DNA of 64,000 bases. It comes from Deuterostichococcus epilithicus (Eukaryota; Chlorophyta; Trebouxiophyceae; Prasiolales; Stichococcaceae). The notes under the pieces are model-generated. The model ran no database searches. It saw only the letters and a program-made list of their open reading frames with translations, and was not told where the DNA came from. A program made the position numbers and the translations under genes. Positions 1 to 64,000 of this stretch are shown piece by piece. Position 1 is the stretch's first letter; every line of letters begins with the position of its first letter. The DNA is taken from contig JAVTLE010000010.1 in the NCBI GenBank assembly GCA_033439295.1, positions 434,001-498,000 on the forward strand. The letters are read 5' to 3'.

Positions 1-186
1 AGCTGCAGCCGGCACCTGCTCAGCAGTCAGGGTTTAGAGTGTAGGGCAGGGGCAGGCGCCTGCACCTGGCCAGCGGCGCCGAAGGCCAGTCGACCGCCAG
101 CAGGAAGCATGCAGCATTCTGGGACAGGACACCAGTCATGACACAGTTCACAGTTTGCATTTTGTGACAATGCCGCAAGTGTGTTG
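1..186. repeat. Direct-repeat copy of intron sequence at 5028-5210
   Basis: The first 186 bases match about 5028-5210 in the same orientation. Shared blocks include AGCTGCAGCCGGC, CCTGCTCAGCAGT, GGCCAGCGGCGCC, GTCGACCGCCAGCAG and TGTGACAATGCCGCA. Both copies carry telomere-like GGGTTTAG motifs. The right-hand copy is the 3' part of an intron in the gene at about 2.8-6.5 kb. The left-hand copy lacks the exon that follows there, so it is probably a piece of a duplicated gene or intron continuing off the window. Confidence 0.8.
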
Positions 187-480
187 GCTCTGAAAACTAT
201 GATCTCACCTCACACCAACTAATAACTTCCACCGCATTCAGTGAATATTGACCCACTGTTTAAACGGACAACAGCAGCGGACAACATCCGCGGCCAGCAA
301 GAACTCTGATGCACCTTGCACTTGTACGACGACCGAACTTCGACCTGGCCACAACAGACCGACTGCAGCAGTTGACGGCGGTCACTGCACGCACATCGTT
401 GCAGGACAGTGTCCGCAATCTGCATTCGTCTGCCGCTGCATTTCCGCTCCGATTGATACATACCGCGGCCTTAGACTGTG

Positions 481-2467
481 TCAGCCGATAATATCGAGCT
501 CCTTGAAGGACGACGGGGCCTCGAACACAACCGTCCCGCTGGCCCCTGCCGCCAGCTGGCTCGTCGTCACCCTGACAACCTGCGGCGGCCCCAGCTGGTA
601 CCCGAAGAATGTGGTGCGATCCACAAGTGCATAGGCCGCCTCTCCCGCAGGTTCCAAGGATGCGACAAAGTTGATGTCTCTGAACGTGTTGCCGCTGGTG
701 CTGTACGGCTTGCGGCCCTTGGCAAAGCTGAAGACCTGCAAGGATGGACGTTGACCTTCATAGCGCGTCAGCGATTCAGGTGTGCACAATCATCAATTTC
801 GGCTGCGTGGTGCCTGATGGTGGGCAGCGTAGCATTCATGCTGCATGGTATATGCTGCAGCTGCGCAGATGGTGTATTCCTCAGGACGAACTTCGCATCA
901 ACTCTCAGTTGCTCGAAGCTGTGAGAAGCGCGCCTGTCCACCCGCGGCAGGATTTGATGCCGCAGGTTCACGTAGATCAAGTCCCACCCCGAGAAACTTC
1001 GTCGGAGTGACAGCTGCGGCACCTACAAGATCAAACTCCAAGGCCGGCTGCGCGTAGGTTTTCACGAGCGTCAGGGTGCCTGACGACCCACCCCCTGTGA
1101 TGGTGATCCGACTGATCCAGCAGAATTCTGCTGGATCTTCTACCTGCGGCAGCGACAACAACACCCATGGCGCCATGGTATGCCAATCACAGCCTTGATG
1201 CTGTTCCAAGATCGACGTGTACTGCAGCAGTGGCGCAAGCAGGCCACAGCCATACTTTACGTGGACAGGGCTGTAGACATGCTACCGAGTTGCCAGATTC
1301 GTGCATTAGAGACATGACCGAGCCCACCGTATCCCAATTCCGATATACGCAGTGCACAGCGTGTGGTGTGCCGGACACCACCGACAGGCCAAGCAACACA
1401 ACGGCGCCTGAAGTCGTTGCGTAGCCGCACTGCGTGCATTTGATGAACCTCTTCAGTCAGACATCATTTGTCCACAACACTGGCGGCTGCTGGCAGACGA
1501 AGGCGACTTTGGCTTGACAGCGCAAAGCATGCCATGACAAGCACCTTCAAGCCCTTGCTGATGCTGGTGACAGAGCAACCATCAGTCTGGTCTGGGGCTT
1601 CATCCGCACAACATATTGTGGCGATGCGGAAGATACACCCACCGTTCCATTTCCAATTATCCCGCGCGGTCCGACGGTCAGCCTGCCCAGCTTGCCACCA
1701 GCTTTAGGAATGTACGAGTAACTCCAGATGCCGCTCGCAAATGATGTAATATCGCACGCTGGTTGTGAGCAATCAACCGCCAGCACTATTGTGTAGCCGG
1801 TGGCCGCCGTGCCAACAATCTTGATGCTGCCATCCAGGTGCACGCACGGAGACTGCCTGGTGCCGAGGCCCTTCAAAGGGAGTGTTCCAATCACCTGCGT
1901 AGCCAGGCAGCAGCATTTGCGACTGTTGATGAAGCCTGCAGCAACAAAGCGCAGCCAGATGCACAGCCGCAATCTGCTGTAACCAACACACTGGCTGTGC
2001 ACGTGTCTGGACGAGGCCCACCTTGGGCTTGTTGCCCATGATTCTCGCGAGGACCAAACTAGTGCTAATCAAGGTGTCTCCAACCCAGGTGCCGGCCACC
2101 ACTGCAACCAGGCCGTCTGTGCTGACCGCGCTACCGCCGCCGTAGACCAGCTTTGCTGGCAGTTTGAGCGTGGTCCTGAGTTTGCCAGCAGGCGAAAAAA
2201 CCTGCGTTAATCACCAATTGCCATCAGCCAGTGTGGGGCAGGCTCTCTAGGGCGAATACCACAACAAGCTATGAGTGTGCAGCGCAGGAGCTGATTGGTG
2301 CCAGCATGCCATATCAAATAAATCGCTACACCCACCTTGATCTGGCGTTTGTATCTCGAGGTCAACATCAGATCGCCGCGCTGCACAGGCGATCCACTGC
2401 TGCCGTCGAACAAGACACAGCAGAGAGTAAAAAGTATCATCAGGACCTGCGTCACGTGGGACGACAT
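481..2467 (-). CDS. Predicted secreted protein, 350 aa, function unknown (5 exons)
   Basis: I do not recognise the family. Exons that join in phase 0 are 2336-2467, 2022-2201, 1643-1894, 988-1221 and 481-735. All junctions are GT-AG, and the total is 1053 nt including the stop. The ATG at 2467 is the first in frame. It begins a hydrophobic segment (VLMILFTLCCVLF) preceded by a short polar stretch, which looks like a secretory signal peptide. The rest is rich in G, T, S and V with alternating hydrophobic residues, for example DGLVAVVAGTW, DGSIKIVGTAATGYTIVLAV and GTLTLVKTYAQPALEFDLV. This suggests a beta-rich extracellular or propeller-like fold, but that is inference. An in-frame GTAGAAG within exon 4 could act as a donor, but the frame stays open through it. 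No enzyme motif is visible. Confidence 0.6.
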
Positions 2468-2815
2468 GCTCGCCAAAACTGCCAACAGAAAGAGTTGGGC
2501 AGAGTATGTTACGAAAAGGCTGGCAGACCCTCCGCAAGCAGAATCGCCCTGCTTTGCACCAGTACAACACAGCCTTGCACCAGTACTGTACCGGTTTACG
2601 CGTCTAATACGTCGTACAATAAAGGCAAGGCTCTCTTTCGATCAATTTCCCGAAGGCTGAACGGCAATTGCTGACAAAAGCCAAAAACGTTCACTTGACT
2701 GCGATTTGGCTCCACTTATCCACCCAGTCAGTGGTCACTGCTTGTATACCCAACATAAATGCGAGATGCGAGATGCAGCTATGGTGCATCGTTTGAGCCC
2801 TGACACCAGCAGCGG

Positions 2816-6491: not shown

Positions 6492-7023
6492 GAGCAGCCA
6501 CTGCCTGTGGCTGGCATTGATGTCCTGACGGACGCCAAAGTGGGCATGCTGATGTGTCTGCCATGAGCCAGCAGCTCGGGTGTTTGATTCAGATTTAGGT
6601 GTACAGAATGCGGGACGAAAAAGTTTCAATGCACCAGTATCAGCGAGGCCGCACACCATACGACTCAAGCTGCTGGCACTGTTGCTGTTGCAGAAAACAC
6701 GTCCGCATGAACGTTCAGGTCGATGGCCCTCCACAGCATCAGACTCCTGCTTGTGGAATACCCACACATGCAACAGCGCAGGGCCACCCGCCAGGATTGC
6801 TACATTGTACGCTGCGCTGCCAAGCCGCCTGCCGCTGCTCTGCAAAGCCGCCTGTATATGGCAGCCGACAATAACCAGCAGTCAGGGTAGCACATGGCAT
6901 CCCTGCCAGCTGCAGGGCCGGCCACAGCGCGGTGCTTCCACACGAAGCGGCAAATTCCGCTTCTTGTGCACAGACGCCTGCCGCCAGCCACCACCGCCGC
7001 AAACGTTGCTACCCGCCAGCCGC
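6492..7023. other. Intergenic, convergent gene ends
   Basis: This stretch lies between the stop of the gene ending at 6491 (+) and the stop of the small membrane-protein gene at 7024 (-). I see no convincing exon in it. The long open frames here are not supported by splice sites or recognisable protein sequence. It probably holds the two 3' untranslated regions. Confidence 0.4.
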
Positions 7024-15300: not shown

Positions 15301-18300
15301 AGGTTGCAGGAAGAAGCACGAACTCGTAAGGTGTCCACAGCACTGTCATGCGTGTATGTGCATTATGCGTCATGCCATGGTTACTTCTCTGCAATGCCCT
15401 AGTTCCTTGGCATGCGAGCCAATACAGCAACAGTGCGGCAGCAGGAATGCGCACCCGGGCCTCCCTGTAGGGGACCAGGCGCTGCTCCGCTGCCTGGTGC
15501 TGCTGGTTCCACCGCAGCGCCTCCAGGCACCGGCCCAGCGTCATCAGGGACGCATTGATGGCCACGCTCTCCCTGGCCAGCGGTATGTTGGGAGGGTTTT
15601 GTCATTCTGGCATGGCCGTGCATGACCTGCCCGTCCGTTTGAGCAGGATTATGTCCTCTTGCAGTTGATGGCGTGTGCATATTCGCATGCATGGCGACTC
15701 AAACCCGATAGCATGCAGCACAGGTGCATTGTGGGCCAGGAGAAGGTGAGCGTGCACTTCAGGCGGGCGCCGTGGTTGCCGGTGCGACCGGAGCGCTCCG
15801 AGCCGGCCAGGTCGACGAACGACAGCCGCCGCAGCTCGCCACCCTGTGCCAGGCAGTAGCCGAGGTGACCTTCTGTATCGCCAGGCACCTCACATGCCAC
15901 CCAGCGATTCTTACCGGATGCAAGGCCGAACTTCCAAGGCGCTCCGGCCGCAGCTTGCAGCGTGCCAGGCGTGACAGCTGCTTCGCAGATCAACTTTTGT
16001 CCCTTACAGCTTCCACATTTGCATGCCTCAGCCGCACCTGCGGCGTGTTGACCATGATGGTGAAGATGGAGTGCGACCGGCTGGAGGCCTGATTGAGCGC
16101 CGTGCGTGCCTTTTGCCTTGCGCGGCTGCCACGCCGCAACACCTCCACTGCCTCCTCTGCGCTCACCACCAGCACCTACAGCATGCATCAAGGTGTTCAA
16201 AAGGGGATGGTAACGGATGCGGAACATGCTGGCCTCCGCCACGTGCGGCTGTCATGCCGGAACACCTCCGCCGCCATGTCCGCGCTCGGCACCGGCGCCT
16301 GCGGTCCTTGGAGATCATGCGGTGGGGTACGACCTCATCTAGAAGACAATCGCATCCTGCTCGACGCTATGCCCTCCACCGCTGCGATGAGATCGGATCT
16401 CGTTTTTCGTGGTGGGTCAGGCCAACCTAAGTTGGTCTGACAGACCCTCAACGAGCTGTGCGTCCAGGTCAATACCTGGCAAAGTCGTGCTGCGGGCATC
16501 TGCTCGCCTTGCTGATCGTCTGGTCCCGTTGCACAGGGTTCCTATTCGCACCTCCTGCAGGCCGTCCACAAAGACGCGCCCCTGGGAATCTTCCTTCAGT
16601 CGCAGCGCCGGGCGGCCGGCTATGGGCGCTGGCTCCGGCCGCAGCAGGTCGAAGATGCTCTCGTTGTAGATCTGCGAACAGCGCAGCGCTCTTTATACGT
16701 TGCTCGTTGACGGAAATAGCCCAGTTCTGGAGACACAAGGCGCCTGCGACGCGAGAGAGCCTCCCATGTTGCCGCCTAATGACACCGTGCACTAAAACCC
16801 AGGGTGCAAACATGGCAGCCGCAAGAACACAAACGCACCTCGTAGTTGCAGACGGAGATGTTTAGGTCCAGTCCCTGCTTCTGCACCTCCTGCGACCCGA
16901 ATATACTGTAAATGTGTTGGCATCATGCATTCATGAGATATGTTAACAGGCAGATGTAACGGCGGGCGGCTGTCCTCTGGTGGAACCGAGCAGCGAGCAA
17001 GGTATGTATGTGGTCGAGACCACGGACGATGCAGGCTTGACAGGCACATGCACAGCAGGTGCGCGCACCGAGAACAGCATCGCGAGCGATTGCGGCAGTA
17101 CGCCAGGTGCGGCCTTGGTGCCCTGCATGCAGCCGGCAAATGGCTGGAGATCAATATGACTCCTGGCATGGCCTGCATGATGCTGATGACAGCGCCCAGC
17201 AACGGGCTCGCTGCCTGCCACCACTGGCAAGCCATGATGCTGGTATGACGACTGTGCGCAGTGTAGCCTGTCCCCACCTCGATGGTGAACGTTTTGCCGG
17301 CGGCTGAGATGCCGTATGCCATGACCACCGAGCTGCACGGCTCCTCACCCAGCAGCTCCCGCACCTGAGCAGGCGGCGCCCAGGCATGCTAGCTTGGACG
17401 GGAACTCGACTGACGACCGACATCACGGGCCTAATGTTGCAGCCCCACAGACCCTTACACACGACCTTGCAAGCAAAAGGCAGCTGGCGCGGCCGCAGCG
17501 GGCGAGCAGCAGGCGCCCATGACGCAGCACGGCGCGGCGCAGGGCTGGGCTGCTCGCTCAGGAGGCGCCGCAGCGAGTGGGAGGCGAACCATGCTGGCGG
17601 CTGTCAGGCCGAAATACTGCTCCTGGGTGGTCTCCTGGCCGCACACGCGCGTGAAGTGGTACGTCTGCCCCCTGTCCCCGTTTTTGTACCTTCGCATCAC
17701 AGTACTGGCAGCATTAAATACTCAAATGTTCCACAGGACAAGCATGGTCACTGCTTCTGGGGAGAGACACGGCGGCTTTGCGAGCCCCTAATGGACCCTG
17801 TGGGCAGATGCTCGACAGCGGCGACAGACAGCTGCAGGAATGTGCAATGGAAGCTGTACGGGACAGCGCTGCGCCCCGCTGCGCACCCTTGAGAGGCCTC
17901 CGGCGCGGCTATGGCGATGCTGGTGCCCGACAGCGCGTGGATGCTGATGGACGGGTCCCACTGCGGCAGCGGGCCACCCGCCGGCGGGCGGATGCGCAGC
18001 ACCACCTGCAAGTAGGTTCGTGTGCATCGGAACAGCTGCACCAAGCACTGCCATTCAGGCGTTCATCTTTTGCACCTCATGCTCGTGAGGCATGGCGTGG
18101 GTGTTTAAGCCTGGATTTTGGGCCTGAAAGCCGTGCAGGCTGCTCTGTGTTACAGATGTACAGCATTGTTACTATTCCGACCGTGCATGGTCGAGCATCC
18201 TGCAGCTGGCGGTGTGGCTGTGCTCTGGGGCAGCGCTTCCCCGCAGCGCGCTCAGCGTGCTCAGCGGCGCACCTGCCTTGGTCACGAGACTCTGGGCCCG

Positions 18301-19119: not shown

Positions 19120-22100
19120 TCAGCGATTGAACGCGCCCTTCCACTGCTTCTTCTGCCGCTTGTCGGCCGCTGCTGCCTTCTGCTGCATCTTCGCCAGCTC
19201 CCGCTCCACGTCGCCAGCGAGCGAGGGGTCCACCTCTGCCACCTGCCTGCGCAGAGATTCGTGCAATTCGCAATCCGAAATTGGTCTCATGAAGGCCAGC
19301 AAGGCCAGACGAAATCTGCAATGCAGAGCGCTGAGGCAGCGCCACACTTGAGACCGATCAGAGACAGAACAGCCGCCTGGGCGTCTGCTGCTCCGGTCGA
19401 GCAAAACCGCAGCACGATGCTGCCGCATACTCTCAGGAACTTACATGGTGCTGCATGATTCTGTTCCACTCACCTGAAGTCCTCCTCGGCGTCCTCGGCC
19501 TGGCCCAGGAAGGCGCGCACCGTCGCGCGCCGCCACAGCGCCTTTGGGTGGTCCGGCACCTCCCTGCAGTCGAGGTTTGTGCATTCATCATGGAGCGGAC
19601 GATGCTGTCCTGATCACGCTTGCATGCTGGGACGCGTCTCGATGCCGCCTGTGTTCCACAAAAGAGCCCAGCAGGGCAGCTGGTGACGACTGCGCACAAG
19701 GAGACCGCATTGAGCAGCAATTTCGACGCTTCCGGCTGCACTCAGTACCAAAGCATGGGGAGGCTCCGCACTTGAGGGCCTTGTCGGCCCACTTGAGCGC
19801 TTCCGTGAAGTTCTCCTGCCGCTGTGCCGCCAGCGCCAAATTGATCATGCAGCTGGCCTTGGTGCCATCCACTGCCTGCCACAGCGCACCACAAGCTGTT
19901 CAGAGGTGTTGCCGGCAAGGGGAGGAGTGCGAGAAGAATGAGACCTGGCAAGCGGAGCTCAGTGGCATCCAGTGGTGCTACTGGAAGACAGCAGCAGAGC
20001 TGCGACTACAGCAGCTGCCTGCTGTCGGTGCAGGCTCTTTGTGCAGGATGCAACACAAAGAGGCAGCAGAAGTAGCATGCACTGCATGACACGTTTGTCA
20101 CAAACGCAGCATTCAACGAGTATGCGGACCTTGCGCTCCTCTTCGTTGCCAAAGGCGAAGATCTGGTTCAGCAGCTTCAGTGCCTTGAGCCATTTTGTGA
20201 TCGCGTGGCTCACGAGGCCCTGCACACAATGATGCATGCCCACTGAAATGCTGCACTTCAGCTTGCACTGCTGGTGTCAGATGGAGGCCTGCAGGGCATT
20301 TGGTGCATGTGTGTATGTGAAAGTGCAGAAAAGCCAGCGCTTCTTAGCCCAACCATATGACAGCACTTCCAGGAGTCGCAGCCGCCATGCACATGCTGCC
20401 AGGAGCCCTCGCCTGCTTGAACACCACGTTGCCCTGGTCCTTGAGCTGCGTGCCGCGCGCCAGCAGCTCTGCCGAGGACAGCTGCGTCGCGTGCGCCTGG
20501 CAAAGCGGTGGCACAGAATGCGTCAGGTGCAGCATGTGCTAAAGCATGTGCTGGAGGTCGGGCAGGGGCAGTGCTGGCGGACGAAGGTTCTGTGCACTCG
20601 GCAAGCCTGCAATGATGCACACAGGCGCACTTCTGAGTGCTTGAGGGTTGTTTAGGTCCAATCAAGGAGAAGATAGCCTGAAGGGCTCACTTGGCGTTCA
20701 AAGTCCAGGAGTTCCACCTCCCATTCCACTGCCGAACTGTCTGATAGTCCCTGCACACCATTGATTGCCCTGTGGAGGGGTCTCCAGCTGAGGAGCATGC
20801 TTGTGTCGCCAGCTGTGCGCATCCTCTTGCATGCGCCAGCTGCAGCAGGGCGGCCGTTTCACCACACTGTCAGCCGCACCCTGCAGCAACGGCCGCCCCG
20901 ACCTTGTGCCGCACACGCTGCACGCTGGCGTCAGCTGTGCAGCGACACTGCCTCACCTCTGGGCGGTCAGGGCGGCCAGCGTAGGCGTATGTCGAGGCGG
21001 AGCGCACCAAAGACACCTCCCCAGGCGTCATCAGCCGCACCGCCATGTCCAGTCCCTCCGGCACCATGCCCATGCCTGGGCGCCCAGGTGCATTCAGCTA
21101 TAGCGAGGGTCGAAACAACATTAGAATCCCTCCTGATTCAATGCGATCATGGGCGTCACGATGGCACCGCCATGCCCAGGCCCCCCGGCACCACGCCCAT
21201 GACCGGCGGCAGTTGTGTGCGTTGGTTGTTTGACCAAGGAGGGTGCTGACTGAAAACCTCTAGAACCTGGGCTTGCCATGTGTGATGCAACCATCAGCGC
21301 GGCGCTGTGCCCAGGCCCTCCGGCCATATGCGTCCCTGCTCCCAGCATCAGGGCACGTGGCTTTGTTTCCGGAGCGGGTTCACGTCAAAAGGGATTCCTC
21401 TGCTGCGCCTCTGCGTCAAAGGGCGCCATGCCGACTCTGCTTGTGCGACCGGTGCCAAGCTCCGGTAGCACCCAGCGGAGCACTGCCGGGTAGCCGTCAC
21501 GCAGGAGCACAGCCCCCCTGGGGCAATCCCGCCTCGAAATGCATGCAGCCCGAGTCTTGCTGAGTCCTGCTGAGTCTTGCCCGAGTCTTGCTGAAGGAAA
21601 TTTGACCAGCTTTTCGTCGTGTTCGATCCGTCATGTTGCTTTCAGGACCAAGGGTCACTCATCCAAAGGATTTCACAGGCAACGGACCCTCTTCTCTCAA
21701 CCTGGTGCAGGGTATGCGCACCTGTCTGGAACTCCAAGGGTGCCGCCGCACCGTCATCACCCCGGGTGTCCAGCAGGGTCCGCTGAGACTCCGGCTCGAT
21801 GACCCTGCGCTGGCGGTAAGAACTAGAGGTCCGGAAAAGTGCATAAACAGGCACGTGCCGCAAAACCTACGACTAGGTAATCTCAATCTTCAGGTTCATA
21901 GTGTGACACGGCGCGCAGGACCATCACATGCTAGCAGGCAGTGATACGAGGAAGTCTCGTTAGAGTGCAGACCGTCTAATCGCAGAGGCGCAACAGCCAG
22001 GCCTGATGCTTTTGTTCTGTGACAAGGGCAACAGGCATCCCGCTGAACGCCTCTGCGACTTCTGACTGCATGTCCGCATTGATGCAGAACTCTTCCCGTC

Positions 22101-25537: not shown

Positions 25538-27008
25538 ATGGCGGGGTGCCTGCAGTCCACAGCCGCACTCCAGTGCCGGCAGTCCACCCGGTGCCCGGGC
25601 ACGACATTGGCAGCCAGCCGCCCCGCAGCGCTGATCAGCCACCGGCGATCATGCGGCAGCGCCTCCCGACAGCGCTTCGTCGCGCGCGCCGAGGCGGAGG
25701 CAGCACCAGCAGCCGAGCTGCCACTGGAGAGGAGTGGCAACAACTTTACAGCCCTGAAAGACATCGAGGCAATCAAAAAGGTCCTTCCGCACAGGTACAA
25801 GCTTTTGATACCCTTTGCTGCCAGCAGAGCCACGCGATCACCTGAAGCAAATGGACAGATCCCTAGATCACCTCCTGCGACGGCCAGATCACCGCGGCAC
25901 TGCAAGCCTGTTTGACAGAATGCTGCACGGCTGCACAGGTTCCCATTCCTCCTGGTGGACCGCGTGGTGGAGTGCGAGTTCCAAAAGTACGCTGTCGGCT
26001 ACAAAAACATCACCATGAATGACAACTTTTTCACCGGCCACTTCCCGGAGCGCGCCATCATGCCAGGCGAGATACTATCTGCTTGTGGCTGCTTTTCCAC
26101 ATGCACGCTTGACTAGTGCATTTCAAAGCGTCGTTGAGACCAATCATGATTGGTTCTCGCGCGAGGAGCGCGTCAGCACAGCATTATGGCTCTGCCCGCC
26201 GTGCGGCGCCTGGCATACATTTTGCACTCCTGCAATTTGTGCAAGTTAGTGTTAGCGGAGGTGTCACTGGAGGTGGACCTTCAGAGGCGTGTCACCGGCT
26301 TGTGAACAAGACTGCGCTCACAGCATCTGCACCGATTGGAAAGCATGCGCGGCAACCCCGCAACATGGCTTGATCGAAGGAGTGCCGCAAGTGAAGGGGG
26401 ATGGCGCGGCTGGGCGGCATCGTACTTTCTGTTATGACGGCACTCTCGAACCTGTAGCCTCATGAAGACCAGTTGCGATTCTGCGGCTTTCACACGAACG
26501 CAGGTGTGCTGCAAGTGGAGGCGATGGCGCAGCTGGGCGGCATCGTGATGCTGGACCCGGAGGCGCCGTCCAAGGAACAGTTCTTCTTTGGCGGCATTGA
26601 GAAGTGCCGCTTCAAGAAGCCCGTCGTCCCTGGCGACACCCTGGTGCGCTTCTGAACCTACTCAGCTCGCCCGCTGTTTGGGTTTGAACAGCCAAGATAG
26701 TGAATGCTGCAGAGACTGGGCGTCAGCCGCACCGCAAAGCTCCAAACATTGAGATGTCCCCCTGTTGGGTGCCAGGGAGCACACAGTGACGTGCGGAGCT
26801 GGACACCGTTGCGTCAAGCATCCTGAAACTGCACCTGCCATCAATGAGACAGCACTGCTGATGCCGCCTACTGCCGCCGCCGCAGATGATGCGTGTGGAC
26901 GTCACAAAGTACAACAAGCGCTTTGGCATCGTCAAGATGAGTGCCAAAGCGTACGTCGGGCCCGACGTAGTGTGCGAGGCCGAGCTCACATTGGCGATGG
27001 GCTCATGA
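25538..27008 (+). CDS. fabZ: 3-hydroxyacyl-ACP dehydratase FabZ, plastid-targeted, 215 aa
   Basis: Exons 25538-25794, 25939-26066, 26504-26643 and 26886-27008 join in phase. The first about 65 residues are rich in R, S and A with few acids until the end, like a plastid transit peptide. The mature part starts near [19 protein letters not shown]. The FabZ core is [14 protein letters not shown], then the active-site stretch [15 protein letters not shown] with the catalytic His, then [16 protein letters not shown] with the catalytic Glu. It ends in [21 protein letters not shown]. The enzyme removes water from 3-hydroxyacyl-ACP in type II fatty-acid synthesis. Intron 2 begins with GC (CCAG|GCGAGA); only this donor gives [12 protein letters not shown] in frame. 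The same intron carries a decayed copy of exon 3's beginning. Confidence 0.95.
26381..26430 (+). repeat. Decayed copy of FabZ exon 3 5' end in intron 2
   Basis: This matches 26502-26551. The shared core is GCAAGTG-AGG-GATGGCGC-GC and CTGGGCGGCATCGT. In the exon it encodes the catalytic segment [10 protein letters not shown]. In the copy the reading would be [15 protein letters not shown], with the glutamate codon disrupted. It sits about 75 bases before the real acceptor. Confidence 0.9.
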
Positions 27009-38327: not shown

Positions 38328-41300
38328 TCAGGCTTCGCTGCCACTCCCTCCCGAGGCATCGGCGGATGCCTCGGCGCATGGTGCAGAGCCGTCGCCGTCG
38401 TGCAGCTTCAGGTGGTCGATGCCGAACTCCGCGTCTTCCTCCGCCGAGCGCTCATACTCCTCGGATTCCAGCCGCGGGTCGGCTGCGGCGTCCTCCGTCA
38501 GCGGTGCGATGAAGGAGTTGGCCAGCGGGTCCCTGTTGAAACACGCAGAGGTTTGTCAACGGACGGAGGGCCGTCAAGGGCCGACGTATGGCCGAGCCCA
38601 ACTGGAGGGTGCAGCTCGAGTACAGACGGAGGGTTGTCAAGCTCCCTTCATGCTGGAAAGCCGCGCGGGTGTCGAGGTCCGCTCGATTCACAAGCTTCCA
38701 CAGCGCCGTGCGCACTCAGCTCTTTTCAATGAACCCAGCACCGGAGTGCCTGGCGGTCTTTGCTGATGCCAGCCGCGACCCCTGCAGCGACTTGGTTCAG
38801 TGGGCTCCGAAAGATGAGGTCGCAGCCGAGACGCACCTGATGACGAGCGTCCACGGCTCGTCCAGGCGTGCAAAGGTGTCCAGGCGGGCAAAGAACTCGG
38901 TGTAGCGCGCCTTCTGCCCCGGCTCAGCGCTGTCGCCCAGGCTGAAGCTGCGCATGCGCTTGAACGAGTCCTGCGGCGGTGCGGGAAAGGCGAGCCTAAA
39001 AAGTTAAACGACACAGCAGGCTTTTGATGGAAGGCATGCCCATTAAAAGACATGCCCGCTCTCAGGCACCCCGTCCCATGCTCTGGGCTGGCACGCGGTC
39101 GCATGGTTGTGATGCATGTGATGCGACGTGATGCATTGGGGTCGTCACGCCCTCTCAATTTTGAAAGGACCCCTTGCTTGCATCATGGGTGCACCTGGCC
39201 CGAATGGCACGTGGATCGAGCTAGCCCGGGTGGACCGGCTAGCGAGCCAGCAGTCAGATCTGTACATTGGCACAGGCACGCTCCTCGCAGAGTCCGCAGT
39301 CGCTTGCCTTAGTGGCAAGCCGCTTCTAGGCGCATGTGAAGTGCAGACCGGCTTTGCTGCGTTTCTTGGGGCTGCTATCGTTCGAGGTGGCATCAAGGTA
39401 TAGAAACGAGCACGATTTCGTCAACCTTCAATGCCACTCCGCACAATGGCAGCCCCCAGAAACGCAGCAAAGCCGGTCTGCACTTCACATGCGCCTAGAA
39501 GCGGCCTGCTGCTGAGGTACGTTCTTGCTGACGCAGCAAGGAGCGTGATGCAGAGGCCGATGTGACAGATCTGACTGCAGGCCTGCCAGCGGGTCCACCC
39601 GATGGATGTGCATGCCAAAGCGGGCTGGGGCCCTCGAGTGCAACCCCGCAGCCCGATCTCGTACCACCACTGTGCTGCGCAGCTGAAACCGTCATATGAT
39701 CACGCAGCAGCTCCGTGCTGCCACCGACAGCCCAGACCTTGTGGAAATTAAGGCGCCGCACCTGCACGCTGGTGAGGAGGCCCTCTACGGTGGTAATGAG
39801 GCCGCCCAGGGACCCGGTGCTGGTGTGCAGGTCCAGTTCCGCGATGTACACCTCTGCGGTGTCGGACTTGATCACGTCGCGGCTCAAGTCCTCCTTTTCG
39901 GTCACCTGGGATGGTGAGGTACCGTCAGGGGTAATAAGATACAGTCAGGGCATAAATGCGTGTGACTAAGAAACAACCTTCCGCTGTGTTTGGACTTGAT
40001 GACGTAGCTGGAAGGGTCACCCTTCTCGCACACCTACGGTGCTAGACTGATCACGGGGGCCCGCTGGTGCGGCATGCCATGCATGCGAGTCACGTCAGAC
40101 GTTTGCGCCATGTCAGAAACTTGCTGACACCCTCGGCGGTGTTGGGCTGCATGACGCCGCGGCTGAGATCCTCCTTCTCCATCATCTGGTGGCGCAGGGA
40201 GGCGTCATGATAATTTGAGTTGTGCTTGCAGCAGAACGCATCACAGAGTGACGGTGCTATCTGTTGCTTGTCATCGCCTGAGACGACTGCGAATGTGTAG
40301 GACGGCCCCGCAACCTGTGTCGCTGAACAGGAGCGGCAGGCCGCGACCTGCATGCCATGCTGCCACCCAAAGTGAGGCGGAACAGGGCAGACGCACCTGG
40401 CGAGCAAGCAGAGTGACAGCCCACGAAAGAGGCAGCTAAGGAACAAAAACCGGGCGCGGCGCACCTGCAGCGTGATGACGCGCCCGGCGTTGCTGAAGCC
40501 GCCGCCGGGCTTGACCTCGCTGTCGCGGTAGCCGCACGCGTCGCAGGCGTTGGACATGATGATGACGTCCTTGAAGTGCGGGATGGCGGTGTGGAACATG
40601 CGGGTGTCGCACACTGCGCCGCACGCGTAGCAGTGCCCCGGCAGCTCCACCACCTGCGGCAGCGGCGCGACAAGCACTCAAAGATTTGCAATTTGAGCGT
40701 TTAGGGTTTGAGGCCGATGGGCCGACCCGGGGCCCATCAACAGCGGTGGCTCAGAACTTTTTGTGCTGACTGCACTGGCTTGCAGAACCGTACATCAAGC
40801 CTTGGTGGGGAGGGTCTGTGAGTGCCAGCATTACCGCCTTGGCGGCCAGCATGGGAGCGCTAATGCCACGCAAGCGACTGAAGCCTGTCGGCGCCTCTGC
40901 TGACGGCATATGGGCCTGGAAATGAAGCATAGACGGAGTGCCCCTTTACGAAACTGAGAAAACTTGCACCTCTTCCGGCGTCGCGCTGAACCTGTCAACC
41001 AGGCTGGCCGCGCCGCCTGCGGCGCGGATGCCGCCAAAGTGTCGCAGCGCCGGCGCGCCAACCGGCTTTGCGCCATGGTGCAGCTCCCAGTCCTTGACGC
41101 CCGCGCCCTCGGGTGCCTGCAGATTTAGGGTTTGAAAATCGTACAGAGCCTTACTATTGCGAGTGCAACACGGATAGTCTGAAGCTGTAGGGTTGAAGGC
41201 TATCGATCTGAGATGGCGGCCGCCCCTTGCAAAGCGGCCTGGTGTGAGGCGCACTGTGCAGGACCGGTCCCTGTTCCCATTGATACCGCCGCCTTACACC

Positions 41301-43136
41301 CAACAGCATTGCTCGTGTCTGGGGCATCTTGGCAAAGCTTCCAAGGGCGGAGCATGGCTATTGCCCTGGCACCCAGACCACATGCAGAGTCAGGTCTCAC
41401 CTGGTCGCCTGGCCCCGACACGGGCGCCGCCGTCGCCTCGCCTTCACCACCGCCGCCCTCGGGCCCTGGCGCCGTCGACAGGCCAATGGCCTCCGACTGC
41501 TCCAGGGTGCGGTCGTAGTGTTCCACTGACAGCGAGGTGTCATCTGCTTCCCCCGGCTCCACATGGCTGCACCCCGCGGGGTCGTCTGCGGCAGGCATGA
41601 GAGGGTCTTGGGGACCTGCTTTGCCAACCACTGTGAGGGAAGCGCTGCCAATGTTTGCGACGCTTGGAAAGCAGCAACCAGCTTGAGTGCATTGGGGCTA
41701 GGCTGATGCTCTGTGCCCATGGCTGTGCCGAGGGTGAGCGTGAAGTCGCGCTCTGCGGCCTGTGTGTCTGTCTGAGCAGGGTGCGTGGACAGGCCTGGGA
41801 GGCCAGCCCCTGACGCAAGCGCTGTGCACGAGGGAGCTGGCAATCGCACCAAGGGTGAGCGTGAAATCGCGCTCGGCGGCGGCGCAGGCGTCCAGCTGGT
41901 CCAACACCGCATCGAGCGCCGCCGCGGTGTCAGGGTCCGCCTCCCTCCGCTGCTCCTGCAGCTCCCTGCAGGTTGGAAAACTGCCGTCAGTGTGACGTCC
42001 TCGAGTGCTGCTTGCCTTTCAAGTCTCCATTGCCGCCCTGTGGATTGCTACCAGGCCGTGCCATGGATCTTGCAGAGCGACGGACTCTCTGCTGTGAAGG
42101 AGGCGCCGCCTGTCCTAGGCCCGACGGGTGCTTGCCTGATGCTGGAGGAGGCGTCCGTGAGCATTCCCTCCAGGGTGGTGATGACGCCCGCCTGCGTGCC
42201 CGGCGGGATCTCGAACTGCAGCTCCGGCACCGTCGCCGTCGCATGGTTGGACTTGACGATCTGGCGCCGCAGCAGATCCTGCCGCCCCTTGGCGACCTGC
42301 GCATTGTTGAAGCACGGCGTCCGCGATGCTTTGTCTGGGAGCATGCATTCACGGTGCTAGTGCAGAAAAACTTGAGGAGCACGGCCAAAGCCCACTACAT
42401 CGGGAGGTGGCAGACTGAGCGGGGCCAGCTTGCATAGCGCTTGTTGTTTGAAGTGACCATGGCCGTGGCATATGCAGGCGCGCCTTCAGCGTGTGGCGGG
42501 AGCCACGCTCGCCGTAGGCGCCTGCGAACTGCACCTCGCTGTTCCTGCAATCGCACACGCGAATGGGAACTTGAGGTATCTGGACCTGGGCAAACACATG
42601 ACAGCCGACCAGCCAGCATCACACAGCGGAGTTGCCGGCAAATTTGACTGTATACTACCGACCTGAAGCCACACTCCTGGCACTCGAAGGACGCGATCAG
42701 TAGCTCCCGGAAATGCGGGATGTCCACCAACAGCATCGTGGTGGTGCCCTGCAAGGTGGGGGGCAATCGTGCCGCAGTCACTTCAGTAAGAGTGTTACAG
42801 GCAGAAGCTCCACGATGGATGGCTGGAGGATCTAGGCTGGGACTGTAACCACAGGCAGCCAGACACCCTACTGTTGCATGCTGAAGCATGTGGCTGACAG
42901 ATTTTGCGCCGTCTGCCGCATGCACAGTGCACCGCCATGCGCATGTCGATAGCTTGCACGCCGACGCATAAGAACATGCTTGGAAGTCTTCAGACGCATA
43001 CCGTCTCATGGCACCGCATGCATAGCGACTGCAGCTGCAGGGGTTGCGAATCGCCATCTGCTGTGTTGATGTGTATCGCTGATTTGGTCTCGTTCTGCTG
43101 TAGCTCCGACACACCCGCATGCTCTAGCGTAGCCAT
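38328..43136 (-). CDS. ZPR1: ZPR1 zinc-finger protein, 518 aa
   Basis: Eleven exons chain in phase: 43002-43136, 42663-42748, 42484-42544, 42136-42296, 41850-41965, 41401-41585, 40970-41116, 40465-40653, 39768-39905, 38837-38970 and 38328-38532. Two zpr1 modules are visible. Module 1 has a C4 finger (LCMRCHET ... FECQECGF) with IPHFRELLIASF, then VPELQFEIPPGTQ, GVITTLEGML and DDPAGCSHVEP. Module 2 has the finger CYACGAVCDTRMF and CDACGYRDSEV with IPHFKDVIIMSN, then TEKEDLSRDVIKSDTAEVYI, GLITTVEGLL and DPLANSFIAPL. It ends in an acidic tail. ZPR1 binds eEF1A, aids its folding and links growth signals to the nucleus. Two introns use GC donors (after exons 3 and 4). The intron 38971-39767 holds a long foldback, and other introns hold decayed exon copies. 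Confidence 0.95.
39225..39620. repeat. Long foldback (inverted repeat) inside a ZPR1 intron
   Basis: Arms 39317-39399 and 39424-39506 are reverse complements of each other. They share an almost uninterrupted core that includes CGCTTCTAGGCGCATGTGAA and CAGACCGGCTTTGCTGCGTT. A loop of about 24 bases separates them. Weaker pairing continues outward to about 39225 and 39620 (for example CAGTCAGATCTGT in arm 1). Both arms also read as the same peptide core (LLGACEVQTGFAAFLGAAIV), so the source may once have been coding. The element lies in the ZPR1 intron 38971-39767 and would be transcribed with it. Confidence 0.92.
39976..40022 (-). repeat. Partial decayed copy of ZPR1 exon 39768-39905
   Basis: CGCTGTGTTTGGACTTGATG followed by ACGTAGCTGGAAGGGTCACC resembles the exon's plus-strand text from GCGGTGTCGGACTTGATCACG to GGTCACC. 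It is shorter than the other copies and lies in the intron 5' of the exon, between it and the copy at 40120-40192. Confidence 0.6.
40120..40192 (-). repeat. Decayed copy of ZPR1 exon 39768-39905 5' end
   Basis: On the minus strand this reads MMEKEDLSRGVMQPNTAEGV. The exon reads VTEKEDLSRDVIKSDTAEVY. Nucleotide similarity is high across about 70 bases, including CGCGGCTGAGATCCTCCTTCTC against CGCGGCTCAAGTCCTCCTTTTC. It lies in the intron 5' of the exon. Confidence 0.9.
41726..41760 (-). repeat. Decayed copy of ZPR1 exon 41850-41965 3' end plus donor
   Basis: Plus strand GAGGGTGAGCGTGAAGTCGCG then CTCTGCGGCC matches AAGGGTGAGCGTGAAATCGCG then CTCGGCGGC at the exon's 3' end. Minus-strand reading: AAERDFTLTLG in both. 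It lies in the intron 3' of the exon, so here the duplicated edge is the donor side. Confidence 0.9.
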
Positions 43137-49166: not shown

Positions 49167-52100
49167 ATGTCGGTGGGAGGCTCTGTCCAGGGCCAGGCGC
49201 CGGATGAAGTGCGGCCAGGTGAGGGATGGTCTCTCTGCAATGTTGTAACTGCCATGCATTTCAGCGCACCGCCAGCTCAGGTGCTGCTGCATTCGAAATC
49301 TGCAATTGCTGCAGAAGCCCAATCAAGTGAAGTCGCCACAGGATGATTTGTCACGCATGATCGAACGTCAGCGGTCTTCAGGCATCAATACAGGTTTGCA
49401 ACTGCCACTCACCTTAATCCAGTCCTCTCCGCCGATGCAGGCCTGTTCCTGGGCGGCTACTATGCGCTGTCGCACGTGGCGGAGCTGGGTGTGACGCACA
49501 TCTTGTCCGTCGTCAATGGCGAGATGAGCCGCAACATGTGTGCCGAGCTGCTGGGCGCTAACACGCAACCAATCGTGCGACACCATGTGGACCTGCAGGA
49601 TGTGGAAACTTCCAACCTGCTGGTGCGAGACCTACGCCCTACTGAAGAACCCACACGAGAATGTGCTGCGCCTTGACATGAAGTTGACATGAAGCAACCA
49701 GCCACCTTGTGGCACATGTGCTTGCGCCACCGGTCTGGCGGCAATGGCAGTGTGTTCCTGGCGGCCTGACATGCGCATAGTGGCTCGCATTCCATCCTCT
49801 TGCTCTCTTGCGCGCAGTCGCACCTGCCGGGCTGCATTGACTTCATCTCCAAGGCGCTGGCCGGTGGCGGCAAGGTGCTGGTGCACTGCGCCGCCGGCGT
49901 GTCACGCTCAGCCACGGTGCGGGCTCTGTGATTGCTCTCGACGAACATCAATTGGATGCACCGAGACTGAGCAAGAAGTTGCAGATATGCTTGCAGCACA
50001 CCGGATCTGGGGGCACATCAGACTGTGTCAGGATATTCGAAGGATCTCACAGCACTGACCACAGCCAGGGTCTTGCGTGTGTGCCATCGCTGGTGTGACT
50101 GGCTATGCAACCACAGGGTGTGCCACATTTACGAGTAAACCCTGTTGTGCCTGCACGATATCGGCATATGCCGAGGGCTTGGTGGCCAAAGGCATTGATG
50201 CGGAGCTGGCTGCACCGAGCACTTGACCGAAACACTCCTGCGAAACCTGTGATGAGCCCTGAAAATCCCTGGAACTCGCAAGCGGTTGACAGCGTACATA
50301 TTGGTGAGCGAGGGCATGGACACAGAGCTGGCCGTACTGTAGCGATTGAGCTACTGTGCAAACCCTGAAGCTCATTTTCACCGCAGACGGTGACGGCGTA
50401 CGTGATGGTGAGCGAGGGCATGGATGCGGAGCTGGCGCTCAAGTACGTGCAGATGAAGCACCCGCCCGCATGGCCCAACCAGGGCTTCCGCTACCAGCTC
50501 AAGCTGTTCGAAGGTGCGCAGCCAGGGCCGCCACCTCCGCCACAAGCTCAATCTCTTTGCAGGTCTTTTCGAAATTGTGCAGGGCCCGGAAATGGCCTCG
50601 GGACGGTCTTGCCGGGGGCTGTGCTGCTGTCGCTGGCAGCGCAGCATGTGATATGAGCCAGGTGAGTCCGGCCCCTCGGAGACTCTGGCGTGACCTAATG
50701 GCGCGGCTGTGTTGCTGGAAGCGCCATTCAGACTGTGGATCTTGCAGATCGTACAGTGTCACCGCAACACGCGCTCAGTCTGGCGCATGTTGCGCGCCAC
50801 AACTGCAGCTTCACGTCCTGGACAGTGGCCGCCAGTTACTGTTGATGCCGGTGTACTCGGATGAACACTTGAACAAACTTTGTTTTTCTGTTCGGCCCAC
50901 AGACACCGGCGGCAAGCCACACTGGGAAGTTTCCGCTGAATTGCCTAGAAGCACTTAAGCCTCAAATCTACTGTCTCGGTCGTCTTCCCTTCTCGATTGA
51001 CAACTAACACCCTGTCTCTGTGTTACTCAACAGATATGGGCTGCAAGCTGGATCCGGAGTACCCGCCCTATAAGCGCTTCCTGCTGAACACGATGACGCA
51101 GGACAGCTTTGGCGGCCAGGCGGCGCTGCCTGCGCCGAGCGAAAAGGACAACCAGAAGCAGGTGCTGTCCGGCATGGCCGCCCTGCTGTCACCAAGCCCG
51201 AGCCAGAGCAGCTGCCTGCCAGCGCCAAGCCGCAAATGCATCCCGTGCTGTGGCTAAGCATGGCTGTTCAGTGCTGTGGCTGTTCAGAAGAGGCCTTTCG
51301 GTCTGTGACACTGCAGCAGGGGCTCCCACACTCCAGCATCCAGTTTCAAGTTGTATCCTTCTCAAGAGAGAGAGAATGTTGAGGCGAACGGTGACTCCGG
51401 CAGACGACTTACCGGTGCCGCAAGTGCCGCTCGCTGCTGCTGACGTCTGCAAACGTCGTGGACGCGGAGGCGGGCCCCAGCGAGGACGCCGGCGACTGGC
51501 GCTCCCGCTACTCCGGCGGCGACGCCAACGGTGAGCTTGCCAGCTTGTCGGTCTGATGATGGCAGTCCGCTAGCAGCGGATGATGGTGGTTTTCATGACG
51601 GTATCGGTTGAGCCATGCGCCTGTAGTGACGCAGGCCTTTCGAGGAACTTTCGTGGGACAAACCCTATGGGACGCAAATGTCCTACTACATGTCTGCAGT
51701 GGGCCTTGGAGAGTGCTATTGGAGGTCAATAACACGATGGAGGCTAAGGCTCCATGGAAGCAGCCAGCAACCAAATATTCTTTCTATTGGTGCTAGGCGC
51801 AGGCGAGCAGCGGGCGGAGGCGACGGCGCTCTTTGTGGAGCCGCTGCGCTGGATGGACGGCGTGCTGGGGGAGGTGCAGGGCAAGCTCAACTGCCCCAAG
51901 TGAGCGTCCGCCTGATTGTTCATGTTGTTCAAGTTGCTCGCAAGCTGGCCCCCAGGGGCTTGCATCATGTAGCAGTCGGCCCACTGACGATGTGCCAAGA
52001 GCGCTACCCCACAGCGCATAAACTGTCTGGGAGGCGAACGGCAGCTGTCGAGTCGTTCACCGTTTACCCCGTCTGCACTGGCCCTGCACAGCTCCTACGC

Positions 52101-53072: not shown

Positions 53073-53664
53073 TGATTTTGTCAGCGCGAGGTGGCAGTGT
53101 AGTGCGGAGTCCCCGGAGCTGATCCATAGGTGCCAGGCTTCTGGCAGTCGAAGGAATGCGGCAAGCTGGGGCCGCTGGGGCTGGGGGGAATCACGCCAAC
53201 AGGCGCCAGAATGCATTGGACGTGCACTCGATGGAAGTGCGCTGCCTGCGGTGACAGTAAGATCAGGGTCGACAAGGCACAACCTTTGCCTTGCCAGGAT
53301 TGTGCTCTGCGTGATCTCGACTGGCTGGCATTGCTTCAAAGAGACATAAAGCAAGGTCAGATGCGTCTTAAATCTGTTCCTTGCGCACCATCTCCCAAAA
53401 CCGCTCTATATGTCTAGTGTCGATAGCACCTGGCAGCGCCAGACTCGGCCGCAAACACGGTTCCAATTTGCAGCAAGCCTCTCTTTCGGAAAATGGCGTG
53501 GCGGGGCTCGGCAATGGCGGCGGCGGCAGCGGCGCAGCTCACGTGACATGCTATAGATCGTGAAAGCACCAACGAATGACACGCTTCTGCTGATGCTGTG
53601 TGTGCAGCTCGCGTAAGCAAGAACTGCGTGTGCAGCTCGCAGCTCCTTTCCAGCCTGGGCGCCG
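53073..53664. other. Intergenic, convergent gene ends with short repeats
   Basis: Between the YVH1 stop (+) and the histidine-phosphatase stop (-). The part 53590-53664 carries repeated copies of the neighbouring exon's end (listed separately). I see no other coding signal. The frame 53130-53417 (+) has several Cys but no splice support. Confidence 0.45.
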
Positions 53665-53700
53665 CTAAAGGTATTGCGTGTGTAGCTCGCAGTTCTTGAG
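53595..53700 (-). repeat. Repeated copies of the PGAM-like terminal exon end
   Basis: The terminal exon ends (minus strand) with AACTGCGAGCTACACACGCA. Just past the stop codon lie further copies: GAGCTGCGAGCTGCACACGC at about 53640, then GCGAGCTGCACACACAGC at about 53605. In the exon this encodes NCELHTQYL. In the copies it reads SCELHTQFL and a shorter piece. Confidence 0.85.
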
Positions 53701-58170: not shown

Positions 58171-58253
58171 GAATGATGTGTCTAGATTGTGTGGGCAGTC
58201 ACCCAAACTGAGCTATTTGCGCCCCTCTTGCATCATTGCCACATATTCGAATG

Positions 58254-61200: not shown

Positions 61201-61379
61201 TGCTGCACGCGCTGCACGCCGCGCTCGACGTGGAACAACACCCACGGCCGCACCGCAGCCCGGAACACGCCGTGCACCGGCGGCAGGAACAGCGGCACAA
61301 ACAGGCACGCTGCCAGGCTCCGGCTGACCCAGGTTTCGAAAGGCAGCCCCGAGGCGGCGGCCACCGTCTCATCTTTCAT
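58254..61379 (-). CDS. Sphingosine-1-phosphate-type phosphatase (PAP2), multi-span membrane
   Basis: Exon 1 (about 61156-61379) starts at ATG 61379 with MKDETVAAASGLPFETWVSR and a hydrophobic helix (LAACLFVPLFLPPVHGVF). Further exons encode VEFYVSFLPAVFW, LGWRLIFLLAFAMFVGNAMK and, at about 60366-60475, DLVCAPRP. Then come EFGLPSSHTLNSCVLNYYMI at about 60040-60111, FIAFSRMYLGMHT at about 59771-59876, PIDVLGGMLGGVAVLNFFIT at about 59530-59604, and helices to the C-terminus (58254-58451, ending SFALLGW). All three PAP2 motifs are present: K-x6-RP (KDLVCAPRP), PSSH, and SR-x5-H-x3-D (SRMYLGM-H-TPI-D). The catalytic side would face the ER lumen, as in LCB3/SPP-type phosphatases that act on long-chain-base phosphates. 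The intron after ISSAQ needs a GC donor. The junction before the last exon is not resolved. Confidence 0.9.
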
Positions 61380-62551: not shown

Positions 62552-62891
62552 CATGTTTGGGCCAGCAAATGAGCAGCGTGCCATCCTTCAGGCAATGCAG
62601 ATTGGCGGCCAGCGGCTGGCTTTAACGCTTGGTGATATACTGTCCATGCCACAGGAGATCCCATCATACAGGGAGAGGCGTGCATTGTGCCTCAGCAGAG
62701 CTTTGTACACTGTTCTGATGTTTCAGCCTGACCTGGGCTGTGCGGTGCTTGCACAGTTTCGCGCGGACGTGTGCGCAGCCGCAGCCGCAGTCCCATCAGG
62801 TGAGTTAAGCCCTGCACAGCCACTCGGTCGATGTGCACAGTGAGCCTCGCCACGCAAGCCATGTGCTGAAGATCGGCCTCCTGAGAGCTCT

Positions 62892-64000
62892 TTGCATGGC
62901 GCTGCTGTGTACTACATGCACCAGTTTGTGGCTTCAATAAGCTTCAAGCTCAGATGTGAGGAGCTCAAAAACCGCAGGCGGCGCTCGCGCAGCAATAGCA
63001 GCCCCCGCCGCCGCTCGCGCACGCCGGTCCGCCGCTCCCGCAGCCGCTCCCCCCGCGGCGGCGGCGGCGAGCCCTACTGGCAGGTTCGCACTCTCGAGAT
63101 GCCTCAGCAGCCTGCCTTTCGTCGTCGCTGTCCCCTTCTGCAGTCCTGGGGTTGGCCAGCCGGCAGTCACTTACATGTTTATGCAGTGCGGCAGGCAGAT
63201 GTGGAGGACATGCACCTGACAGTGATAGCTGCAACACCCTATTCCATGCTGCATTCACCATTGCGCTGTGCTTCGTGTGCTCCACCTTCTGCCTGCCGTG
63301 CCACCCCTACCGCAGTCCTGCGCATTTCGTGTTACACGACTCTGCTTACTTTCCGTGTGCACCAGAAAAAGCTGAACCGCCTGATTGATGACGGCGTCGT
63401 GCGCGCGGGCGAGATCGACAACCGCACGCTGGATGCCCTCGAAGGTGCGCGGGCCCGTGAAACAGCCTGCAAACAATTCGCAGTTGCGGGAGCTAAGGGT
63501 TTAGGGCTTGCAGTGATCAGCAGTTGTCACCTGTTTGCTCAAGGCTCGCACACAAATTGCCATGCACTGCCGTGCAGACCTGTCGGCAGAGCTGGCGGAG
63601 TGTGCCATTGAGCGCTTTGCGGAGGCCAACTTCAGGAACATCAACAACAAGAGCGGCTTCCTCATGGTGGGTTTATGGCCATGCGACAAACATTGGGCCG
63701 CGTGCTGCAAGTGACTGGCGCCTTCATGTGAAGCATCTGGAGAGTCTGCAGGGGCCATGTCGTGGTACGGGCAGCGGCGCCAGCCTTGAGCTCTCGCTCT
63801 GCAAGGCTTCGACTTGAGCTCATCACCCGAGCCGAAGGCACGTTTCGACTGGATCAGGTGGTCACCTCAGATCCTTCATCGTGCTTGCGCAGGGCATTAT
63901 CCGGCGGGTGAAGGAGGACGGTCCCGACACTGGCGACAATGTCAACTTCGACCTGTTGTCACGCTCCGTGCGCCACCGGCTGCGCGACCTCATGGACGAT
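62892..64000 (+). CDS. RS-rich RNA-binding protein with hnRNP-Q-type acidic domain (partial)
   Basis: The first clear exon ends at 63083. It encodes ELKNRRRRSRSNSSPRRRSR then TPVRRSRSRSPRGGGGEPYW, an SR-protein-like RS stretch. Exons 63366-63444, 63578-63666 and 63893-64000 (cut by the window end) join in phase. They encode KKLNRLIDDGVVRAGEIDNR, TLDALEG, DLSAELAECAIERFAEANFR, NINNKSGFLMGIIRRVKEDG and a further helical piece. The LIDxGVVRxxEID...NKSGFLMGIIRRV pattern is the acidic helical domain of hnRNP Q/R-like proteins. RRM domains would be expected past the window but are not visible here. The start is unresolved. An upstream frame from ATG 62553 (MFGPANEQRAILQAMQIGGQ) reaches a donor at about 62800 but does not join in phase. 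Nuclear RNA-processing role inferred from family. Confidence 0.7.

What the first reader, a model, noticed from the sequence alone, without database searches (positions are those of the whole stretch)
1..64000. Recurrent decayed duplications of exon edges inside neighbouring introns
At least eight genes (kinesin, PAS1-like, FabZ, FRA10AC1-like, WNK, ZPR1, YVH1, PGAM-like) carry one or more mutated copies of the beginning or end of an exon in the adjoining intron, or just past the stop codon in the PGAM-like gene. Each copy spans the splice-site side of the exon. Orientation and side agree: 5' exon edges are copied into the upstream intron, 3' edges into the downstream intron. Seen directly by comparison. 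The inference is repeated tandem duplication across exon-intron borders, with the outer copy decaying. This could create intron sequence, decoy splice sites or alternative isoforms. I know of no description of such a density.
Basis: partly seen in the sequence, partly recalled or inferred. Interest (0 to 1): 0.88.

Follow-up and report, generated by a model that had tools for sequence, protein, structure and literature searches.

The report
Exon edges copied into neighbouring introns
In the parts examined of this alga-like genome, stretches of roughly 30 to 90 bases at the ends of exons recur as decaying copies about 120 bases away inside the neighbouring intron, mostly in long introns, which suggests one way in which introns grow.

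Summary
Of 580 predicted exon edges in 314 kb, 20 have a same-strand copy in their own adjacent intron; length-matched other introns and reverse-complemented introns give 0. Six of the eight genes named are confirmed (kinesin-like, PAS1-like, FabZ-like, FRA10AC1, ZPR1, YVH1); PGAM-like is weak; WNK was not found. The nearest copies lie 82-161 nt away (median 122, 24 edges), begin within about 14 nt of the splice junction and cover 30-87 nt of exon. They drift without coding constraint; 9 of 24 edges show ladders. Introns of 400-600 nt carry a copy in 10 of 25 cases, those of 60-200 nt in 0 of 88.

Best explanation: recurrent tandem-type duplication across splice junctions, hidden by splicing, which lengthens introns. 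Ladders and intron-length arithmetic support it.

One result contradicts plain duplication plus neutral decay: the intron half is recognisable in 3 of 24 pairs (1 of 20 outside locus L007, where 13.6-19.1 were expected), although the exon half is 76-97% identical. Faster turnover, concerted evolution, or copying anchored at the junction remain open. No function is shown.

The parts
16122..16177 (-). kinesin-like gene, 5' edge of an exon (first exon base about 16175); original
   Evidence: exon placed by eye, not in the gene model
16245..16300 (-). copy of that edge in the upstream intron, lag 123, 43/56 in the edge alignment
21037..21074 (-). PAS1-like (FKBP-TPR) gene, 5' edge of exon 20957-21075; original
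21164..21201 (-). copy in the upstream intron, lag 127, 34/38
21291..21324 (-). weak second copy, lag 262, 27/33
   Evidence: score 31; reverse-complement controls of the 24 edges reached at most 24
26496..26546 (+). FabZ-like gene, 5' edge of exon (first base 26504); original
   Evidence: exon edge placed by eye
26372..26423 (+). copy in the upstream intron, lag 124, 44/51
28120..28172 (-). FRA10AC1 gene, 3' edge of exon 28122-28241; original
28007..28057 (-). copy in the downstream intron, lag 113-115, 43/51
39851..39909 (-). ZPR1 gene, 5' edge of exon 39762-39905; original
40131..40189 (-). outer copy in the upstream intron, lag 280, 48/62
39978..40035 (-). weak nearer copy, lag 128, 45/55 with gaps
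   Evidence: score 29
41849..41880 (-). ZPR1 gene, 3' edge of exon 41850-41965; original
41728..41759 (-). copy in the downstream intron, lag 121, 29/32
50382..50436 (+). YVH1 gene, 5' edge of exon (first base about 50387); original
   Evidence: edge placed by eye
50277..50332 (+). copy in the upstream intron, lag 105, 46/55
50180..50210 (+). second copy, lag 226, 26/31
50536..50564 (+). weak candidate copy of the 3' edge at 50487-50515 (YVH1), score 28
   Evidence: at score 28 or more sees 29 edges against 1.4 expected
53625..53645 (-). weak candidate copy, past the predicted stop, of 53675-53695 in the PGAM-like last exon, 19/21

Best explanation
The genome undergoes recurrent short tandem-type duplications with units of about 80-160 bp. 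A unit that straddles a splice junction runs from some 30-87 nt inside the exon to some tens of nt inside the intron. After the event two copies of the splice site exist; splicing stays at the one touching the intact exon, so the protein is unchanged, and the displaced exon-edge copy becomes intron and drifts. Repeats of the event with the same unit give ladders, and the intron grows by about 120 nt each time. Shown here: position, side, orientation, spacing, ladders, lack of coding constraint, association with long introns. Inferred: that each event was a tandem duplication that included the intron half, that splicing ignores the copies, and that break repair or replication slippage made them. 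Unexplained: why the intron half is unrecognisable in most pairs.
For: 20 of 580 edges with a copy in their own intron against 0 in controls; 12 of 302 against 0 with conservative models. All copies direct; 0 of 467 exon interiors beyond 60 nt from the edge match the same intron, as expected if a contiguous unit spans the junction. Ladders at 9 of 24 edges, successive spacing mean 128 SD 18, with exon-side ends agreeing within ladders more than by permutation (8 ladders, p 0.0085 and 0.0031). Subtracting whole units returns the 17 carrying introns to a median of 279 nt against 233 for the other 275 (p 0.46); subtracting exon parts only leaves 393 (p 2.6e-5). Two edges of L007 keep the intron half too (72-75%). 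Tandem pairs nearly as long as their lag occur in unassigned sequence: 80 of 83 nt in L016, 133 of 157 nt in L029.
Against: The intron half is recognisable in 3 of 24 pairs, 1 of 20 outside L007, against 13.6-19.1 of 20 expected for neutral decay, 7.6 if flanks evolve twice and 4.3 if three times as fast. The closest pair, L008 9767-9807/9894-9934 (95%), is sharply bounded on both sides. Aligned identity falls to background about 10 nt into the intron. The length test is biased to some degree because a copy needs room. Few intron-intron pairs were seen (4 of 46), though both members then decay.
Confidence: 0.55

Rival explanations
1. Junction-anchored copying: a process copies only the exon edge with its splice signal into the adjacent intron about 120 nt away; the intron half was never part of it. 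A templated insertion during break repair or replication that ends where the GC-rich exon gives way to the intron is one possible form.
For: Intron half missing in 21 of 24 pairs; sharp ends in the closest pair; exon edges 68% GC against 60% for introns; copies begin within -14 to +7 of acceptors.
Against: Does not explain ladders with agreeing exon-side ends or the length added per copy; two L007 edges keep the intron half.
Confidence: 0.22
2. Old tandem duplications kept alike by gene conversion: the exon part of the copy is repeatedly overwritten from the constrained exon, while the intron halves, once misaligned by indels, drift beyond recognition.
For: Explains exon halves of 76-97% with unrecognisable intron halves; in four ladders the copies resemble the exon more than each other; scores are nearly bimodal, 20 edges at 40 or more and 22 at 30 or more.
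Against: In the two L007 ladders the copies resemble each other at least as much as the exon. Star-like relations also follow from plain decay. My mosaic test is confounded by loose alignment and not relied on.
Confidence: 0.13
3. The copies are functional alternative splice sites or regulatory decoys kept by selection.
For: 12 of 16 acceptor copies keep AG (by eye). The nearest L007 copy can be read in frame for 40 codons into the real exon.
Against: Mismatches nearly even over codon positions and frame-breaking gaps; 3 of 8 donor copies keep GT; 7 of 24 nearest lags are multiples of 3.
Confidence: 0.05
4. Artefact of assembly or of the ab initio gene models.
For: No reads or transcripts were available; terminal exons of the models are often doubtful.
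Against: Most copies differ from the exon by several per cent to a quarter and lie on many contigs; the signal is there without gene models; 8 of 9 predicted products match Pfam domains.
Confidence: 0.03
5. Protein repeats, introner-like elements, or intron gain by duplication of an AGGT-bearing exon segment.
For: All three can give short direct repeats near splice sites (recalled; the AGGT model also in PMC4974935).
Against: 7 of 24 nearest lags are multiples of 3; 22 spacers show no repeat family in 314 kb and two stretches match only themselves genome-wide; the copies face their own exon rather than the opposite end of the intron.
Confidence: 0.02

Closest known systems
Tandem duplication crossing an intron-exon boundary, potato RdRp gene (Ma, Lan and Niu 2016, PMC4974935; passages seen)
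   Same: A direct tandem duplicate of intron tail plus exon head, with splice signals inherited from the parent structure.
   Different: One case, and it created a new intron; here existing introns seem to be lengthened, at many loci, in ladders, and the intron half is mostly unrecognisable.
Intron gain by duplication of an AGGT-bearing exon segment (model described in PMC4974935 and PMC2891723; passages seen)
   Same: Short tandem duplication hidden by splicing.
   Different: There the intron is the duplicated exon segment, with a length equal to the lag; here the copies face their own exon inside longer introns.
Small tandem duplications from fill-in of 3' overhangs at breaks by Pol alpha-primase with CST (PMC8355091; abstract and outline seen)
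   Same: A DNA-level source of short direct tandem duplications.
   Different: Mammalian cells and Cas9 breaks; no link to splice junctions in the abstract. Whether it acts here is inference.
Exon-intron border repeats in the Chlorella hexose transporter gene HUP1 (1991; recalled only, not seen)
   Same: If my recollection is right, the same anatomy in one green-algal gene.
   Different: Could not be checked: no paper describing it turned up in the library.

Membership tests
Tandem duplication across an exon-intron border | Direct orientation, copy on the intron side of its own exon, unit containing the junction | tested here: met
Tandem duplication across an exon-intron border | Similarity covers the whole unit, intron half included | tested here: not met
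   3 of 24 pairs, 1 of 20 outside L007; met in two L007 edges
Tandem duplication across an exon-intron border | Intron grows by a whole unit per event | tested here: met
   with an ascertainment caveat
Tandem duplication across an exon-intron border | Empty site in a relative | not testable with these tools
   no relatives of this genome are held
Intron gain by AGGT segment duplication | Intron head resembles downstream exon head, intron tail resembles upstream exon tail | tested here: not met
   of the 20 copies, each lies on its own exon's side or nearer to it than the far end in the positions printed, the two farthest being L017 1985 and ZPR1 39906
Introner-like elements | Family of similar introns or inserts at many loci | tested here: not met
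   22 spacers against 314 kb: besides self and own-ladder matches, four matches of 16-31 nt at E 0.014-0.041; two stretches genome-wide, self only
Protein repeats | Lag a multiple of 3 with both copies coding | tested here: not met
   7 of 24 nearest lags; gaps of 1, 2 or 4 nt in copies
Alternative splice sites | Use in transcripts | not testable with these tools
   no transcripts available

The most novel reading that the evidence does not exclude
A junction-anchored copying process repeatedly deposits exon edges, with their splice signal but without the adjoining intron, about 120 nt into the neighbouring intron, and is a main engine of intron growth in this lineage.
Probability: 0.22. Interest if true: 0.85.

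Novelty: new variant of a known kind. Interest (0 to 1): 0.62.

Why it matters
Where intron sequence comes from, when no transposon is involved, is poorly known. Here a recurrent process leaves recognisable marks: 12 of 37 introns of 400 nt or more carry exon-edge copies, against 0 of 88 under 200 nt. That makes intron growth in this lineage testable by comparing relatives and by cDNA. The missing intron half is a sharp anomaly that simple tandem duplication does not predict.

Tried and rejected
Protein repeats: rejected by lags and frame-breaking gaps. Introner or other dispersed elements: no support (only two stretches were searched genome-wide). AGGT-type intron gain: copies are on the wrong side. 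RNA- or cDNA-templated origin: set aside by argument, because donor-side and acceptor-side copies are mirror images and some include up to about 14 nt of intron. Branch-point and pyrimidine signals at copies: inconclusive. Mosaic test for gene conversion: formally significant (combined p 0.028 and 2e-6) but confounded by the loose scoring used; not relied on. Copies at predicted CDS starts and stops: at score 40 or more 1 of 78 starts and 2 of 72 stops against 0 of 150 reverse-complement controls, not interpretable because the ab initio terminal exons are doubtful. In the alignment of the L007 ladder two intronic copies look 95% alike in the exon part and unrelated in the intron part; I judge one copy to be 13 nt out of register (one search has a 12/12 match at the shifted place) and do not use it. 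Literature: ten searches listed no paper whose title or abstract start describes exon-edge copies at such density; passages shown from three algal genome papers do not mention it. Subscription papers are mostly not held.

Gene finder: with a free intron length the IG-penalty versions turned 70-78% of the sequence into intron and were replaced by a fixed length prior. Dropped or added rows: introns without both flanking exons or under 60 nt were left out (323 introns to 290, 580 edges). Four edges (kinesin-like, FabZ-like, YVH1, L008 9797) were added by hand to the 20 for the flank and lag tests, hence 24. The split at L007 was made after seeing the data. One ladder (L021) was left out of the permutation of exon-side ends because the query was capped at 75 nt. 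Ladder ends, lags and unit lengths were typed.
Full report
What was examined. The window is C9:434001-498000 of a 46.8 Mb eukaryotic genome in 21 contigs, 57-65% GC in 4-kb blocks. TTTAGGG repeats stand at ends of C1, C3, C4 and C5, the contigs in a capped listing. With gene content and splice signals this suggests a green alga; the taxon is my inference. I added 25 stretches of 10 kb from 13 contigs, 314 kb in all, under 1% of the genome.

The signal without gene models. The window has 7 same-strand pairs under 2 kb at 35 bits or more (lags 105-127 and 280); opposite-strand pairs are 7 with starts under 50 nt apart and 4 beyond 10 kb. In 170 kb elsewhere there are 48 same-strand pairs at 38 bits or more, 23 of them at lags 50-175, 7 at 200-300 and 14 beyond 1 kb, against 6 opposite, 5 of them under 50 nt. 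A further 80 kb gives 16 (9 under 600 nt, 7 beyond 2 kb) against 5 (1 under 50 nt, 4 beyond 5 kb). One Markov resample of the 250 kb gives 0 against 3.

Gene models. A hidden Markov gene finder, started from a rough GT-AG consensus and a guessed codon table and trained on these sequences alone, settled on donor AG|GTG(C/A)G and acceptor (C/T)GCAG|G. It predicts 323 introns, median 233 nt. Of nine products given to Pfam, some cut short and two joined by hand, eight match domains: FKBP-TPR, Fra10Ac1, ZPR1, DSPc, kinase, poly(A) polymerase, HRQ1-type helicase and the cysteine-rich repeat of GLG1-type proteins. The PGAM-like one matches none.

Where the repeats lie. Of 46 same-strand pairs with lag under 400 at 38 bits or more, 25 are exon-intron, 7 exon-unassigned, 6 exon-exon, 4 intron-intron and 4 unassigned-unassigned, the last including the kinesin-like case. 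Exons are 25% of the sequence. Part of this excess is expected, because an exon holds one member of the pair still.

Test against chance. Each exon edge (up to 100 nt of exon plus 15 of intron) was aligned with its own adjacent intron: 20 of 580 edges reach score 40, against 0 with ten length-matched other introns per edge and 0 with the reverse complement. Conservative models give 12 of 302 against 0 and 0. Exon interior more than 60 nt from the edge gives 0 of 467. Next and previous introns give 0.

Anatomy. Aligned blocks begin between -14 and +7 at acceptors and end 31-87 nt into the exon; at donors they run from -73..-31 to -4..+13. Adding three window edges and one L008 edge that the models missed gives 24 edges. 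Their nearest copies lie 82-161 nt away, median 122, 7 of 24 a multiple of 3. Nine of 24 show two or three copies at score 24 or more (reverse-complement controls at most 24), some of them weak. Successive spacings average 128, SD 18. In L007 one 763-nt intron holds three copies of the downstream exon's edge and two of the upstream exon's edge. Three of the 17 carrying introns have copies of both edges.

Decay. Mismatches between exon and copy are 56/327, 49/327 and 68/325 at codon positions 1 to 3, and the 16 gaps are of 1, 2 or 4 nt. In four ladders (ZPR1, YVH1, L017, L021) the copies resemble the exon more than each other; in the two L007 ladders they resemble each other at least as much. 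The copies thus show no coding constraint.

Intron length. 0 of 88 introns of 60-200 nt carry a copy, 4 of 131 at 200-300, 1 of 34 at 300-400, 10 of 25 at 400-600, 2 of 12 above 600. Subtracting whole units brings the 17 carrying introns to a median of 279 nt, not different from the 233 of the other 275 (p 0.46). Subtracting exon parts only leaves 393 (p 2.6e-5). So each event seems to have added exon part plus spacer, with the caveat that a copy needs room to be found.

The contradiction. If a whole unit was duplicated, the intron halves should be alike at about twice the divergence of the exon half. They are in 3 of 24 pairs (two in L007, one in L019), outside L007 in 1 of 20, as many as chance gives. 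Simulation predicts 13.6-19.1 of 20 for neutral decay depending on indels, 7.6 with flanks twice and 4.3 with flanks three times as fast. Earlier forms of the test gave 4 of 20 and 3 of 20; exon-side flanks, a control, gave 3 of 19. Without L007, ungapped identity is 0.84 over the first 10 exon bases, 0.76 over the first 5 intron bases, 0.40 over the next 5 and background beyond 10; gapped flanks are not distinguishable from mismatched pairs (p 0.13). At acceptors positions 5-15 still show 0.40-0.46 against 0.28-0.30, so a little intron was included. Spacers match no family in 314 kb; two stretches searched genome-wide match only themselves.

Reading. I judge tandem-type duplication across splice junctions most likely (0.55), because it explains junction anchoring, side, ladders with agreeing exon-side ends (similar ends could in part reflect the shared query) and the length added. 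Tandem pairs almost as long as their lag occur in unassigned sequence (L016, L029). The lost intron half needs an extra assumption: fast turnover, or conversion of the exon part. Copying of exon edges alone (0.22) explains the flanks but not ladders or lengths. No function is shown; one L007 copy can be read in frame for 40 codons to the real exon.

Against what is known. The closest published case found is the potato RdRp duplication crossing an intron-exon border (PMC4974935, passages); tandem duplication in intron gain is also discussed for Drosophila (PMC2891723, passages), and a break-repair source of small tandem duplications in PMC8355091 (abstract and outline). I recall, unchecked, a 1991 report of border repeats in the Chlorella HUP1 gene. 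If right, the anatomy has been noticed in one gene, and what is added here is its density, the ladders, the link to intron length and the missing intron half.

Noticed in passing
window 1000-2000; C9:420809-421803, 423285-424188, 429835-430850: The start of the window is one of at least four tandemly arranged related stretches on C9 (70-77% identity, same strand).
   Followed up: no
L013:9289-9463, L029:9321-9503, L021:2127-2277: Pairs labelled exon-exon have lags 75, 99 and 120, multiples of 3, as expected of in-frame duplications inside exons; the gene model of L021 is doubtful there.
   Followed up: partly
L007:7319-7510: The nearest exon-edge copy in this intron lies 120 nt upstream and reads in frame without stop into the real exon, so an in-frame alternative acceptor is conceivable.
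   Followed up: partly
L028:3715-5130: Several exon-exon pairs at lags 212, 264, 278 and 496 in one predicted minus-strand region, possibly a repeat protein.
   Followed up: no
L008:9767-9934: A 41-nt block, 95% identical at lag 127, spans a donor site with sharp ends on both sides; the youngest-looking copy and the hardest for plain tandem duplication.
   Followed up: yes
window 6810-6854, 33973-34024, 54331-54360: Short perfect or near-perfect tandem repeats of 23, 24 and 13 nt, unrelated to the exon-edge copies as far as seen.
   Followed up: no
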